A stretch of DNA of 64,000 nucleotides, taken from contig NZ_VTRT01000001.1 in the NCBI RefSeq assembly GCF_008274585.1, positions 310,001-374,000 of the forward strand, in the 5' to 3' direction. Origin of the DNA: Pedobacter sp. BS3 (GTDB lineage Bacteria > Bacteroidota > Bacteroidia > Sphingobacteriales > Sphingobacteriaceae). This document shows, piece after piece, positions 902 to 5,272 of the stretch; within the stretch, counting starts at the first letter, position 1, and every line of letters begins with the position of its first letter. The position numbers were made by a program, and so were the translations under genes. A model generated the notes under the pieces. The model worked only from the letters and a program-made list of their open reading frames with translations. It did not search any database and had not been told where the DNA came from.

Positions 902-1999
902 ATGGTTTTAAAATCGAACAAACCCAATAATAACCTGCAGAAACTTCCACCTAAGCAATCTTTGATAGAAACAATTGCCATTCTCAAACAGGAAAGCAGA
1001 TCTGCCGTTGCTTTGGCAGAGTTAAAAGGATTGGCAAGAACGTTACCTAATCCGCATATTCTTGTCAATGCAGTTGTATTAAAAGAAGCTCAGGCGAGTT
1101 CCGGAATAGAAAATATTGTTACAACTCAGGATAAATTATATCAGGCGCTATACGCAAAATCCGCAAAACCAGATGTTGCAACCAAAGAAGTGTTACGATA
1201 TAGAGAAGCCTTATTGATGGGAACAGATCTTATCAAAGAGAAAGGCTTTTTAAATGTAAATGGGATCGTTGCTATTCAAAAAGAATTAGAAGAAAATAAT
1301 GCCGGATTTAGAAAACTGCCGGGAACAGCTTTGATCAATAATTTGACGAATGAAGTTATTTATACGCCTCCTGATAATTTTGAGACCATCAGTGAGTTAA
1401 TGAAAAATTTAGAAGAGTATCTGAATGACGACTCTGATAATGTCTCTCCGCTGATAAAGCTGGCTATTCAACATTATCAGTTCGAAAGCATTCATCCGTT
1501 CTATGATGGAAATGGCAGAACCGGAAGAATTATAAATGTACTTTACTTAATTCTAAAAGGTCTATTGAATGAACCTGTTTTGTATTTAAGTTCGTTTATT
1601 ATTCAAAACAAAGGCGATTATTACCGTTTATTGCAAGAGGTTAGAACAAAAAATAATTGGGAGGACTGGATCCTATACATTCTGAAAGGTATTGAGCATA
1701 CGGCTATTGAAACCATTAAGCAAATCAATCAAATTAATACCTTGTTTTCCCAAACACAGCAAATGGTGCAAAAGCATTATCCGAGAATTTACTCTAAAGA
1801 TTTAATTGAGCAGCTATTTATTCATCCGTACTGTAAGATCGAGTTTTTGGTAAATGCACTGAATCTGAATAGGAAAACAGCATCCACTTATCTGAAAAAC
1901 CTGGAAGAGTTGGGCATACTTAAGGCTGAAATAAAGGGAAAAGAAACTATTTTTCTGCATGTACCACTTTATGATTTACTCAAAAAAGGCAAAGCATAA
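902..1999 (+). CDS. Fic family protein, class II (N-terminal inhibitory helix)
   Basis: Fic enzymes usually transfer AMP from ATP to a hydroxyl side chain of a target protein. The core motif HPFYDGNGRTGR is at residues 198-209, with H198 the predicted catalytic base and D202/N204/R206 the ATP-handling residues. Upstream, S66-S-G-I-E70-N71 matches the (S/T)xxxE(G/N) autoinhibitory motif, whose Glu blocks the ATP gamma-phosphate. Its place before the core makes this a class II Fic that needs no separate antitoxin. The last ~65 residues look like a winged-helix domain (LNLNRKTASTYLKNLEELG). The gene is AT-rich compared with the neighbouring core genes, suggesting transfer. The target is unknown. 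Confidence 0.92.
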   Translation: MVLKSNKPNNNLQKLPPKQSLIETIAILKQESRSAVALAELKGLARTLPNPHILVNAVVLKEAQASSGIENIVTTQDKLYQALYAKSAKPDVATKEVLRYREALLMGTDLIKEKGFLNVNGIVAIQKELEENNAGFRKLPGTALINNLTNEVIYTPPDNFETISELMKNLEEYLNDDSDNVSPLIKLAIQHYQFESIHPFYDGNGRTGRIINVLYLILKGLLNEPVLYLSSFIIQNKGDYYRLLQEVRTKNNWEDWILYILKGIEHTAIETIKQINQINTLFSQTQQMVQKHYPRIYSKDLIEQLFIHPYCKIEFLVNALNLNRKTASTYLKNLEELGILKAEIKGKETIFLHVPLYDLLKKGKA

Positions 2000-2000
2000 A

Positions 2001-2083
2001 CGTGTCCCATTTTTACCCACGTTTTAAAAACGTGTCCTATTTCTGTCTTTTTTTACCCATGTTTTAAAAACGTGTCCTATTTT
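2001..2083 (+). repeat. Imperfect tandem repeats with palindromic core, downstream of fic
   Basis: Units begin CGTGTCC(C/T)AT and end ACCCAYGTTTTAAAAA: unit 1 at 2001-2030, unit 2 at 2031-2070 with an internal T-rich insertion, and a partial third at 2071-2083. The first junction forms a palindrome, CACGTTTT-A-AAAACGTG, at 2018-2034. It may act as the fic transcript end or be a remnant of a mobile-element end. The remainder to 2360 shows no gene. Confidence 0.7.
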
Positions 2084-2360
2084 GGGACATAAGGCAATTG
2101 GCTTAGAAATATAAATAATCAAATCTTTCGTTCCCTTTTCGCTGATGCGAGCATTGCCCGCTCATACCTAAAAAAGTAATCATATCAATTTTCACCCGAT
2201 CATCTCCACTCGGGAATAAACTGCAGTTCAGACTGGTGGACAAATCCTATCGGTGAAATATATTTATTTTCAGACGGCTCAAGTAATTTTGCATCCATAA
2301 AAAGTATTCCGGCTTAAAGCCGTATTAAAATAAGAAGCTGATCTTCACTATTTTTGTCTT

Positions 2361-3143
2361 GTGGAAAAAATCGGCTTTATAGAGATCAGAATTACAGGAT
2401 CAAAAGGAAATCTTGATCTGTCACCCGATAATTATGACATTCGGGAACTGATTACTATGCTTGAAAACGCCGAAGATTTGCTTTATTCGGGCGAAAAAAA
2501 AGACAGGCCTACAATTAGTTACAGGATCGAAGAGGGCTCTGTTAAGCATATTTTCAAAACATCAATTCAGTATATCATTGGCTTTAATGCTGTTATTGGA
2601 CAGATTAACCAGGTACAGAACATTGATTTTCTTGACATTGGAACAGCAAAAGCATTTGAGAACATTCAGGATATTGCCGCTAAAAAGAATTATACTTTCA
2701 ATATAAAAACATCGCTTGACCAAACAAACGAAGTAAAGATTGACAGAACTACCCACTTTTACAGAACTGAGGCAATTTGGGCAGACGCCAAATTTTACTT
2801 TTACGGAAAGGTTACAAATGCAGGTGGTAAGGATAAGGCTAATATTCACATTTCAACCGAAGAACTTGGAACAGTAAGAATACAAACCCCGATTAGTTTT
2901 CTGGAGCAGTATAACGAAAACATGCTTTATAAAACCTTTGGTATTCGTGCCACAGGGAAACAACACTCTGAAACAGGCGAAATAGATACTTCAACACTAA
3001 AATTTATTGAATTGGTTGATTACCAGCCAAAATATGATGAACAATATTTAAGATCACTTCGGGAAAAAGCAAAGAAAAATTGGCTTGGATCAATTAACCC
3101 CGATAATTGGCTAAAAGAAATTAGAGGAGGTTATGAAGTATAA
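2361..3143 (+). CDS. Conserved hypothetical protein, partner of a PIN-domain gene
   Basis: A 260-residue soluble protein starting at GTG, without signal peptide or membrane segment. I do not recognise a named domain. It has mixed alpha/beta character, with conserved-looking blocks ERPTISYRIEEG-like near residue 50, FYFYGKVTNAGGKDKANIH near 145-165, and a C-terminal LRGGYE-type end (IRGGYEV). Its stop overlaps the ATG of the following PIN gene, with a strong GAGGAGG site inside its last codons. The two genes are therefore translationally coupled and probably work together. I recall similar long partner proteins beside PIN genes in Bacteroidota, but cannot confirm this here. An antitoxin-like role is inference only. 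Confidence 0.75.
   Translation: MEKIGFIEIRITGSKGNLDLSPDNYDIRELITMLENAEDLLYSGEKKDRPTISYRIEEGSVKHIFKTSIQYIIGFNAVIGQINQVQNIDFLDIGTAKAFENIQDIAAKKNYTFNIKTSLDQTNEVKIDRTTHFYRTEAIWADAKFYFYGKVTNAGGKDKANIHISTEELGTVRIQTPISFLEQYNENMLYKTFGIRATGKQHSETGEIDTSTLKFIELVDYQPKYDEQYLRSLREKAKKNWLGSINPDNWLKEIRGGYEV
3124..3130 (+). promoter_or_regulatory. Strong Shine-Dalgarno of the PIN gene
   Basis: GAGGAGG lies 3 bases before the ATG at 3133, inside the end of the upstream gene. Such a strong site is unusual in this window and fixes the PIN start. Confidence 0.7.
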
Positions 3144-3613
3144 AAGAGCGGTACTGCTTGATACAAGTTTTTTTCTCCGCTTTCTAAACGAAAGCGACCC
3201 ATTATTCAGAAATGCGGACGGTTATTTTCGTTACTTTTTGAAGAAATTGATATGTTAATTTCAACAATCAGCATAGCCGAATACTGTATCGGTGGCGACA
3301 TTCACGAATTACCGTTGAAAAATTTACAAATCCTTTCAACCTGAATCACGCACAACGAACAGGCGAATTTGCAAAGATTGCTTTTCAGGAAAGAGCAAAT
3401 AAAAATCTGCAAGTAAACGACCGAAAAATTATACCGAACGATACAAAACTTTTCGCCCAGGCAGATTATGAAAAAACGGTAGAATTTTACCTGTCGTCAG
3501 ACGCAGAAAGCCTGAAAGTTTACAACGCAATCAAAGACAAAACTAATCCAAAGTTTCAGTTCATTAACCTGGCTACACCACATCATCATACATTCGGAAT
3601 ACTTGACCTGTAA
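3133..3613 (+). pseudogene. PIN-domain RNase, two frameshifts
   Basis: Reading across frames gives one PIN-like protein. Frame 1 has VLLDTSFFLRFLNESDPLF (first catalytic Asp) and stops at 3258. Frame 2 continues as EEIDMLISTISIAEYC (acidic Glu) to a stop near 3342. Frame 3 continues as FNLNHAQRTGEFAKIAF, then IIPNDTKLFAQAD and SSDAES, and ends GILDL. The first shift fits loss of one T in the T5 run near 3236-3240. The second lies near 3331-3337. PIN proteins are Mg-dependent RNases, often VapC-type toxins. As sequenced the gene cannot make the enzyme. Both shifts could be decay or sequencing error. Confidence 0.8.
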
Positions 3614-3868: not shown

Positions 3869-4486
3869 CTACTTATAATCCCCTATCTGCAACCTGTGAT
3901 CACAAAAGGCATATTCATTTTGCTGGTTTGAACCGATAATAACCAGCCGGTTAGCGGTGTAATGCTGTATAAGCTGAAGATACCAGGCCTCGCCCTGGGA
4001 ATCGAGGTTTGAAGTAGGCTCATCAAGCAGTAAAAGCGGCGTATCCGAACAAAAAGCCAGGGCCAGTCTAACCCGTTGCTTCATACCCGACGAAAAGTGC
4101 TTGATGTATTTATGCTTTGCTTTTTCCAGACCCAGTAAAGCTATCAGCGTTGCCACGGTAACACCCGGATAAAATTTTTTGAACCGGAAATGAAAATCAA
4201 TTTGCTCGGCCAGGGTAAATTCTTCGATCAGTTCCAGGTAAGGAGCAGCAACAGACAGGTAATTAAAGATATGGCTACCTTCAATTTCCCTGTCAGTATC
4301 ATGATAGTTTATTGTTCCGGCTGATGCTGACAGGCTGCCTGCGATAATTTGAAGTAAGGTAGATTTCCCTGATCCGTTGGGACCCAGGATAGCGTACGAT
4401 GAGCCTGAGATGAATGTATAGTTGATGTTGCGGAATATCCAGTCGCGGTTAAACCTTCTGCCTATATCATTCAGCGTAATTTGCAT
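3869..4486 (-). CDS. ABC transporter ATP-binding protein in the lpx operon
   Basis: A single 205-residue nucleotide-binding domain. Walker A GPNGSGKST is at 35-43, signature FSSGMKQR at 131-138 and Walker B LLLLDEPTSN at 151-160 followed by a D-loop. The position that normally holds the switch histidine reads GSNQQNEYAFCD, so Asn replaces His. No permease gene is adjacent. It is the last gene of the lipid A operon, 3 bases after lpxA, which suggests a role in envelope lipid handling. Whether it hydrolyses ATP normally is open. The cognate membrane subunit must be elsewhere. Confidence 0.88.
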   Translation of the reverse strand: MQITLNDIGRRFNRDWIFRNINYTFISGSSYAILGPNGSGKSTLLQIIAGSLSASAGTINYHDTDREIEGSHIFNYLSVAAPYLELIEEFTLAEQIDFHFRFKKFYPGVTVATLIALLGLEKAKHKYIKHFSSGMKQRVRLALAFCSDTPLLLLDEPTSNLDSQGEAWYLQLIQHYTANRLVIIGSNQQNEYAFCDHRLQIGDYK

Positions 4487-4489
4487 GCA

Positions 4490-5272
4490 TCATCCGTTAG
4501 AAAAACCTTTCATGATACCGCGGTTAGAGTTACGGATAAAATCCAATATTTCATCACGTATTTCAGTAGGTTGTTTCTCGGCCTCAATAATATCCAATGC
4601 CGTAGCAATGTTATGGTTTTTTACAAAGAGCGTGCGGTAAATATCCTGTATTTCGTTGATCTGCTCAGACGAAAATCCTCTCCGGCGTAAGCCAACAGAG
4701 TTGATACCAACGTATGATAGCGGCTCGCGGGCGGCCTTAACATACGGCGGAACATCTTTACGCACCAGCGAACCACCGGTTACAAAAGCATGCGAGCCTA
4801 TTTTAACAAACTGGTGGATGGCAACCAGACCTGCCAGTACCACGTAATCGCCAATGGTGATATGCCCTGCCAGCGTGGTGCTGTTTGAAAAAATGCAATT
4901 ATCGCCAACTTCGCAATCGTGGGCAATATGGCAGTATGCCTGTATCAGGCAGTTCTTACCCACTACGGTTTTCCACCGGTCTTTGGTTCCGCGATTAATG
5001 GTCACGCATTCGCGGATGGTGGTATTATCGCCAATTTCAACGGTAGTTTCTTCGCCTGCAAATTTTAGATCCTGCGGAATACCGGAGATTACAGCCCCTG
5101 GAAAAATACGGCAGTTTTTACCGATGCGGGCCCCATCCATAATGGTAACGTTAGGGCCAATCCAGGTTCCCTCGCCAATAACCACATCCTTGTGGATGGT
5201 CACGAAAGGTTCAATAACCACATTATCGGCAATTTTTGCCTGCGGATGTATATATGCTAACGGTTGAATCAT
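4490..5272 (-). CDS. lpxA: Acyl-ACP--UDP-GlcNAc O-acyltransferase LpxA
   Basis: First committed enzyme of lipid A synthesis: it moves a 3-hydroxyacyl chain from ACP to the 3-OH of UDP-GlcNAc in the cytoplasm. The 260-residue protein is a left-handed beta helix of hexapeptide repeats. AYCHIAHDC at 112-120 contains the catalytic His (H118, equivalent to His125 in E. coli), and a helical C-terminal third follows. Length is normal. Its ATG overlaps the lpxC/fabZ stop by four bases, indicating coupled translation in the lpxD-lpxC/fabZ-lpxA operon. Confidence 0.97.
   Translation of the reverse strand: MIQPLAYIHPQAKIADNVVIEPFVTIHKDVVIGEGTWIGPNVTIMDGARIGKNCRIFPGAVISGIPQDLKFAGEETTVEIGDNTTIRECVTINRGTKDRWKTVVGKNCLIQAYCHIAHDCEVGDNCIFSNSTTLAGHITIGDYVVLAGLVAIHQFVKIGSHAFVTGGSLVRKDVPPYVKAAREPLSYVGINSVGLRRRGFSSEQINEIQDIYRTLFVKNHNIATALDIIEAEKQPTEIRDEILDFIRNSNRGIMKGFSNG

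What the first reader, a model, noticed from the sequence alone, without database searches (positions are those of the whole stretch)
2361..3613. Two-gene module: 260-aa unknown coupled to a PIN-domain gene
The unknown gene's last codons hold a strong GAGGAGG and overlap the ATG of the PIN gene by 11 bases, so the pair is coupled. An antitoxin of 260 residues would be unusually large for a PIN pair, so the partner may have another job such as target recognition. The PIN copy here is broken by two frameshifts while the partner is intact.
Basis: partly seen in the sequence, partly recalled or inferred. Interest (0 to 1): 0.55.

Follow-up and report, generated by a model that had tools for sequence, protein, structure and literature searches.

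The report
Large-antitoxin PIN toxin gene pair
This is a wandering two-gene bacterial module in which a PIN nuclease, probably a toxin, is made together with an unusually large protein that looks like its antidote; in this genome the nuclease gene is dead while the antidote gene is still whole.

Summary
A 260-aa ORF (GTG 2361-3143) overlaps a PIN gene (ATG 3133) by 11 bases; the PIN copy here is split over three frames. PIN is the only recurrent neighbour. The large protein matches no curated family; AlphaFold gives a ferredoxin-like domain, an OB-like domain and a C-terminal tail with W241, W250 and R255 (97, 94, 99% of 70), the pattern by which VapB tails plug VapC active sites. Broken PIN with intact partner occurs 11 times, the reverse once. 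Best reading: a type II-like toxin-antitoxin module with an oversized two-domain antitoxin. New detail: in 34 of 74 loci the Bacteroidota promoter element ends 3-5 nt before the partner's start codon (mostly GTG), so its mRNA is probably leaderless. Binding, toxicity and neutralisation are not shown.

The parts
2349..2356 (+). TAttTTTG, Bacteroidota -7 promoter element; predicted transcription start at or next to the GTG (leaderless mRNA)
   Evidence: same placement (element ends 3-5 nt before the start codon) in 34 of 74 loci against 4 of 228 neighbouring ORFs; 4-5 nt element-to-start spacing from PMC6847099 (passages)
2361..3143 (+). 260-aa partner, proposed antitoxin
   Evidence: no Pfam/NCBIfam/PADLOC family
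2361..2771 (+). N-terminal domain, residues 1-137, predicted ferredoxin-like; G59 and S60 invariant in 70 of 70
   Evidence: AlphaFold pLDDT 91.6, pTM 0.86; fold comparison only at Z <= 5.8; conservation
2772..3026 (+). middle domain, residues 138-222, predicted OB-fold-like
   Evidence: AlphaFold model; VIA Z up to 8.2 with SSB/RecO-type OB folds; no Foldseek PDB match at E <= 1e-3
3039..3125 (+). C-terminal tail, two predicted helices, residues 227-255, with W241, W250, R255
   Evidence: compared with the VapB tail (PMC3384007 passages)
3124..3130 (+). GAGGAGG, Shine-Dalgarno-like, encoded by Arg-Gly-Gly codons, 2 nt before the PIN ATG
3133..3143 (+). overlap of the two genes (11 bases)
3133..3258 (+). 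broken PIN gene, piece 1 (holds the first catalytic Asp)
3243..3341 (+). broken PIN gene, piece 2, another frame (holds the catalytic Glu)
3335..3613 (+). broken PIN gene, piece 3, third frame (holds the last two catalytic Asp)

Best explanation
A mobile, self-contained toxin-antitoxin module of type II kind. The first gene makes a large antitoxin (ferredoxin-like domain, OB-like domain, C-terminal tail) and the second, overlapping gene makes a VapC-like PIN ribonuclease. Shown by sequence: near-exclusive linkage, conserved overlap, own promoter directly at the start codon in about half of the loci, common inheritance, strong purifying selection on both genes, an intact PIN catalytic set in relatives, and more frequent loss of the PIN than of the partner. 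Inferred: the antitoxin is translated first from a leaderless mRNA; ribosomes then start the overlapping PIN; the tail lies across the PIN groove with W241/W250 in the hydrophobic cleft and R255 in the metal site, keeping the RNase silent until the antitoxin is degraded, diluted or titrated. The two folded domains would give dimerisation, RNA/DNA binding or trigger sensing (unknown). In this genome the module is in decay: the toxin is dead, the antitoxin still open.
For: Linkage: 74 of 76 judged loci (78 distinct, 2 cut by contig ends) have a PIN or remnant directly downstream. Driven from the PIN side: 9 of 9 genomes with this PIN among 200 relatives and 13 of 14 among 395 of the phylum have the partner beside it; the 14th is an N-terminally deleted PIN relic. 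The PIN cluster covers 48 loci; the next neighbour cluster covers 4, all Dyadobacter. Start of PIN inside the partner gene in 56 of 60. Common inheritance: identity correlation 0.94 over 1326 pairs of 52 intact pairs; median dN/dS 0.043 (partner) and 0.059 (PIN) in 19 unsaturated pairs. Decay order: 11 loci with broken PIN and intact partner, 1 the other way (L052), sign test p = 0.006. Tail: W241 97%, W250 94%, R255 99% of 70 partners; in Shigella VapB, Trp47/Trp50/Phe51/Phe60 fill the VapC cleft and Arg64/Gln66 enter the active site, with FitAB alike (PMC3384007 passages). Promoter: 34 of 74 against 4 of 228 control ORFs, Fisher p 5e-20. Foreign look: G+C 0.36-0.38 in the pair, 0.45-0.48 in the flanks.
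Against: No toxicity, binding or neutralisation result exists for any member. No complex could be predicted here. Antitoxins usually carry a recognisable DNA-binding domain; none was recognised. The partner is as conserved as the PIN, which is not the usual picture of a fast-evolving antitoxin. L079 is an intact partner with no PIN, beside HsdS-like type I restriction genes, so the partner may act alone there. L052 has an intact PIN with a 5'-truncated partner (at a contig start). The loci were mostly found through the partner, which favours finding intact partners; the two PIN-driven searches soften but do not remove this. 40 of 74 loci lack the exact promoter element at the leaderless position. 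The PIN pieces of the window itself match no family model.
Confidence: 0.74

Rival explanations
1. A defence (abortive-infection) effector pair: the partner is mainly a sensor or target-recognition subunit (OB and ferredoxin-like domains bind phage or host nucleic acid) that switches the PIN RNase on, and inhibition is only its resting state.
For: Partner is large, two-domain and as strongly conserved as the nuclease; sporadic distribution (11 of 200 and 13 of 395 genomes); some copies in prophage-like gene clusters (L045, L048) or near methylase or HsdR-like genes (L038, L081, L059, L064; functions recognised by eye, not scanned); an orphan partner beside HsdS-like genes (L079); Foldseek likeness to a phage DUF6575 protein (E 1.1e-7), and DUF6575 is a component of a tested anti-phage system (PMC9519451 passages).
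Against: Toxin-first decay and the VapB-like tail are what an antitoxin predicts; most loci have no other conserved neighbour; no PADLOC match; profile comparison gives no sequence support for kinship with DUF6575.
Confidence: 0.17
2. A non-toxic RNA-processing pair: the partner is an RNA-binding cofactor that delivers substrates to a PIN RNase with a housekeeping or regulatory task.
For: OB-like and ferredoxin-like folds are common in RNA-binding proteins (general knowledge); conserved pairing and low dN/dS.
Against: Sporadic presence, unrelated neighbours and unrelated upstream DNA, a copy on a Bordetella plasmid, and frequent selective death of the nuclease (11 loci) fit an addiction module better than a housekeeping enzyme.
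Confidence: 0.07
3. Two neighbours without functional tie; overlap by chance.
For: In the window itself the PIN is dead, so nothing couples there now.
Against: 74 of 76 loci, 56 of 60 overlapping starts, identity correlation 0.94.
Confidence: 0.01

Closest known systems
VapBC (PIN toxin with RHH/AbrB/PHD-type antitoxin), e.g. Shigella VapBC and Neisseria FitAB
   Same: PIN toxin with the acidic catalytic set beside its antitoxin; antitoxin C-terminal tail with aromatics followed by an Arg near the end (PMC3384007 passages).
   Different: Partner is 260 aa (VapB of Shigella is 75 aa, same paper); predicted ferredoxin-like and OB-like domains in place of an RHH/AbrB/PHD/HTH domain; probably leaderless mRNA; partner evolves as slowly as the toxin.
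PIN-associated antitoxin families listed by Makarova et al. 2009 (RHH, AbrB, PHD, COG2442, COG2886, COG2856, COG2880, COG1753, MerR, xre)
   Same: Found by the same logic: a protein family whose neighbour is a PIN gene.
   Different: None of the listed families is described as a 260-aa two-domain protein; OB-fold does not occur in that paper (passages and term counts, PMC2701414).
DUF6575 proteins (component of an anti-phage system in E. coli, PMC9519451)
   Same: Foldseek aligns the partner model to a phage DUF6575 protein over 257 columns, E 1.1e-7, TM 0.38.
   Different: No sequence or profile support; the two DUF6575-like examples opened here (L084, L117) show no PIN-like neighbour by eye; the L117 protein is longer, 372 aa.

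Membership tests
Type II toxin-antitoxin module | Two adjacent, co-inherited genes encoding a toxin-family protein and a partner | tested here: met
   74 of 76 loci; correlation 0.94
Type II toxin-antitoxin module | Toxin arrests growth and partner neutralises it by binding | not testable with these tools
   needs the bench
Type II toxin-antitoxin module | Toxin is lost before antitoxin when modules decay (expected, not strictly defining) | tested here: met
   11 to 1, p = 0.006; 9 to 1, p = 0.02 without the two near contig ends; partner-driven sampling is a caveat
VapC (PIN toxin) | PIN domain with conserved acidic residues | tested here: met
   PF01850 in 18 of 18 members at E <= 0.1; D9, E50, D103, D123 invariant in 18; the window copy itself is broken
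VapC (PIN toxin) | Sequence-specific RNase (tRNA or rRNA) | not testable with these tools
   -
VapB antitoxin | Match to a known antitoxin sequence family | tested here: not met
   0 Pfam, NCBIfam or PADLOC families for the partner; 23 relatives gave only stray Pfam hits in single members
VapB antitoxin | N-terminal DNA-binding domain (RHH, AbrB, PHD, HTH) | tested here: inconclusive
   none recognised by profile; predicted fold is ferredoxin-like plus OB-like, but fold searches exclude nothing
VapB antitoxin | C-terminal tail with aromatics and an active-site Arg | tested here: inconclusive
   residues conserved (W241 97%, W250 94%, R255 99% of 70) but no complex could be predicted or solved
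DUF6575 family | Profile match to PF20215 or profile-profile kinship | tested here: not met
   no Pfam hit; hhalign probability under 1% against one DUF6575 protein

The most novel reading that the evidence does not exclude
The pair is the first described member of a distinct class of PIN modules whose antitoxin is itself a two-domain sensor. A ferredoxin-like/OB-like body reads a nucleic-acid or translation signal, a VapB-like tail holds the nuclease, and supply of the antitoxin from a leaderless GTG mRNA ties release of the nuclease to the state of translation initiation, for example during phage takeover or stress.
Probability: 0.2. Interest if true: 0.72.

Novelty: new variant of a known kind. 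Interest (0 to 1): 0.5.

Why it matters
It adds an unannotated protein family, sporadically spread through Bacteroidota and seen on a Bordetella plasmid, to the PIN toxin partners, and suggests that a PIN antitoxin need not be a small DNA-binding protein. It gives intact members to test, a defined tail residue (R255) for a one-mutation test, and a clear case of an antitoxin probably made from a leaderless message in a phylum where most mRNAs are leadered.

Tried and rejected
Family scans of the partner and of the three PIN pieces in Pfam, NCBIfam and PADLOC gave no family for this pair (one sub-threshold Surp hit at E 0.1 for piece 3). Stray Pfam hits in single relatives (DUF693 0.0023, T4_baseplate 0.05, DUF4495 0.29; N_NLPC_P60 0.0024 and Myosin_N 0.035 for the Bordetella protein) and a weak PDB profile hit to exopolyphosphatase (E 0.07) were judged chance. 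PHROGs: the window protein has only a weak hit (0.012); a remote relative (L011) matches phrog_19868 (4.4e-8, function unknown). Phage records: no tblastn match. Plasmids: one record only. Viral contigs: 2 loci, one of them (L080) identical to L045 and dropped. Weak phylum hits L112 and L116 were judged noise from the ORFs there; L113-L115 were not opened. The DUF6575 lead from the structure search has no sequence support. The N-domain fold search gave only a common arrangement (best Z 5.8), so no function is read from it; absence of a better match excludes nothing. A role for the neighbouring Fic gene: a Fic homologue lies within 4 kb in 3 loci, so it was dropped as part of the module. Chance overlap was rejected by the counts. 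Rows dropped before counts: duplicates L001 and L066 (the window itself), L002 = L025, L004 = L047, L067 = L031, L080 = L045 (L002, L004 and L067 judged duplicates from contig length and position, not aligned); contig-cut L061 and L065 from the linkage count; L013, L024 (PIN cut) and L043 (partner cut) from the intact/broken comparison. Some of the 78 loci are close relatives of each other (e.g. L017/L022, L012/L013, L031/L068), so they are not all independent. Literature searches that found no description of such a pair: (open-access library only, listings read, so absence is weak evidence).

Full report
What is there. The window lies on a 1.31-Mb contig of a 4.8-Mb genome, whose relatives are mostly Bacteroidota by record titles. 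A 260-aa ORF runs 2361-3143 (+) from GTG and overlaps by 11 bases an ATG at 3133. The downstream reading is a PIN gene in three frames; pieces match an intact relative at residues 1-40, 13-78 and 70-161. The partner is single-copy in its genome. G+C of the pair is 0.36/0.38, of the Fic gene upstream 0.35, of the flanks 0.45-0.48; DNA homology with the only same-genus genome met in these searches starts at 3871 and not before, so the pair sits in an acquired-looking stretch.

Relatives. The partner was found in 11 of 200 related genomes including its own, in 54 loci of the named genome collection, in 13 of 395 genomes of the phylum, in 2 viral contigs and on one Bordetella bronchiseptica plasmid at 23% identity. 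A broader profile (A3) gave 17 of 395 with weak hits included, of which one further, L111, is a credible relative (6e-24) followed by what reads as a decayed PIN (judged by eye). After removing duplicates there are 78 loci.

Neighbourhood. 76 of 78 could be judged (2 end at contig edges) and 74 have a PIN gene or a PIN remnant directly downstream. The two without are L007 (partner itself broken) and L079 (partner intact, beside HsdS-like genes). Clustering of 401 neighbouring ORFs gave one cluster in 48 loci, the PIN; the next covers 4 loci, all Dyadobacter synteny. From the PIN side, 9 of 9 PIN-positive genomes among 200 relatives, and 13 of 14 among 395, have the partner beside the PIN; the exception is a PIN lacking its N-terminal part. 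The start of the PIN lies inside the partner gene in 56 of 60 loci with a long PIN ORF, at -11 in 33 and -8 in 19.

Selection and decay. Partner and PIN identities correlate at 0.94 over 1326 pairs of 52 intact pairs; mean identities 0.65 and 0.63; median dN/dS 0.043 and 0.059 in the 19 unsaturated pairs among 108 close pairs. Both genes are intact in 56 loci; PIN broken with partner intact in 11 (window, L005, L017, L044, L046, L050, L051, L053, L060, L062, L071); partner broken with PIN intact in 1 (L052, at a contig start); both damaged in 3 (L063, L064, L111) (classes assigned by hand from these outputs). 11 to 1 gives p = 0.006; without L044 and L050, which lie near contig ends, 9 to 1 gives p = 0.02. 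The partner is the longer gene, so chance would break it more often. Caveat: most loci were found by the partner.

Anatomy of the partner. No curated family matches it. AlphaFold on 23 sequences gave pLDDT 78.7 and pTM 0.53: an alpha/beta N-domain, a beta-rich domain at 138-222 and two C-terminal helices. The N-domain alone with 69 sequences gave pLDDT 91.6 and pTM 0.86, order b-a-b-b-a-a-b-b, ferredoxin-like; its best solved match reaches only Z 5.8 (3.6 A over 93 residues). The middle domain aligns with OB folds (Rim1 Z 8.2, 3.0 A over 75 residues; RecO Z 7.9, 2.9 A over 68), a level that the tool itself calls middling. Most conserved among 70 partners: G59, S60, G155 (100%), R255, G149, G156 (99%), W241, P22, E38, Y148 (97%); W250 is at 94%.

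Mechanism. In Shigella VapBC the VapB tail puts Trp47, Trp50, Phe51 and Phe60 into the VapC cleft and Arg64 and Gln66 into the active site, and FitAB does likewise (PMC3384007, passages). The partner here ends in W241-x8-W250-L-x3-R255 followed by only a few residues. By analogy the tail should silence the PIN. This is inference: no complex could be computed.

Expression. The Bacteroidota -7 element TAnnTTTG stands in the 30 nt before the partner start in 36 of 74 loci, and in 34 it ends 3-5 nt before the start codon; among 228 other ORFs of the same loci 4 do so (5 if any start in the first 30 codons is allowed; Fisher p 5e-20 for 34/74 against 4/228). In Flavobacterium johnsoniae the element ends 4-5 nt before the transcription start and 87% of predicted leaders are longer than 10 nt (PMC6847099, passages). 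So the partner message is probably leaderless, with GTG starts in 45 of 74 and ATG in 24. Upstream DNA beyond the promoter is mostly unrelated between loci (25 aligned), so promoter plus two genes looks like the moving unit. 40 of 74 loci do not have the exact element at that place; a looser match was seen in some.

GAGGAGG at 3124-3130 is 2 nt from the ATG; it is written by the codons of a conserved Arg-Gly-Gly, kept as SD-like in 33 of 44 such loci. Bacteroidota mRNAs naturally lack SD sequences (PMC6847099, abstract and passages). Overlap, not the SD, is the evidence for coupling.

Comparison with the known. The PIN-partner families named by Makarova et al. 2009 (PMC2701414, passages) include none of this kind. 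Full-text searches found no description. I file the pair as a type II-like module with a VapC-superfamily toxin and a partner that would work like VapB but matches no known VapB family: new variant of a known kind. The DUF6575 likeness is by predicted fold only.

Verdict. Interest is moderate: a well-supported new antitoxin-like family with a testable tail and an unusual, probably leaderless start, but the general principle (toxin-antitoxin) is familiar and the local copy is dead.

Noticed in passing
window 902-1999 (+): Fic-family protein (SoFic-like: Fic_N, Fic, SoFic_C) directly upstream in the same low-G+C stretch; below NCBIfam's SoFic cut-off. Fic homologues occur near the module in only 3 loci.
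   Followed up: partly
window 2010-2090: Short direct repeats built around an ACGTTTTAAAAACGT palindrome between the Fic gene and the module (seen by eye).
   Followed up: no
L079 1456-2277: Intact partner homologue without any PIN gene, beside an HsdS-like gene, in a genome that also holds a complete pair (L073).
   Followed up: partly
L045 and L048, around 4001-5250: The pair sits inside a prophage-like gene cluster in both; the flanking ORFs are shared between the two loci, and L045 is identical over 8131 bases to a viral contig, L080.
   Followed up: partly
L058: A contig labelled Beijerinckiaceae carries a 63%-identical pair; probably a mis-binned Bacteroidota contig (not tested).
   Followed up: no
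L084 3332-4403 (own genome, contig C12): A 132-aa ORF overlapping a 233-aa ORF with a sub-threshold DUF6575 match; a small gene also precedes the DUF6575 gene of L117, suggesting a two-gene DUF6575 system.
   Followed up: partly
L077, L011: Remote partner homologues (about 20% identity to the window protein, 34% to each other) pair with a different-looking PIN subtype (CLDTH/CIDTN start), so the partner family may have changed or diversified its nuclease.
   Followed up: partly
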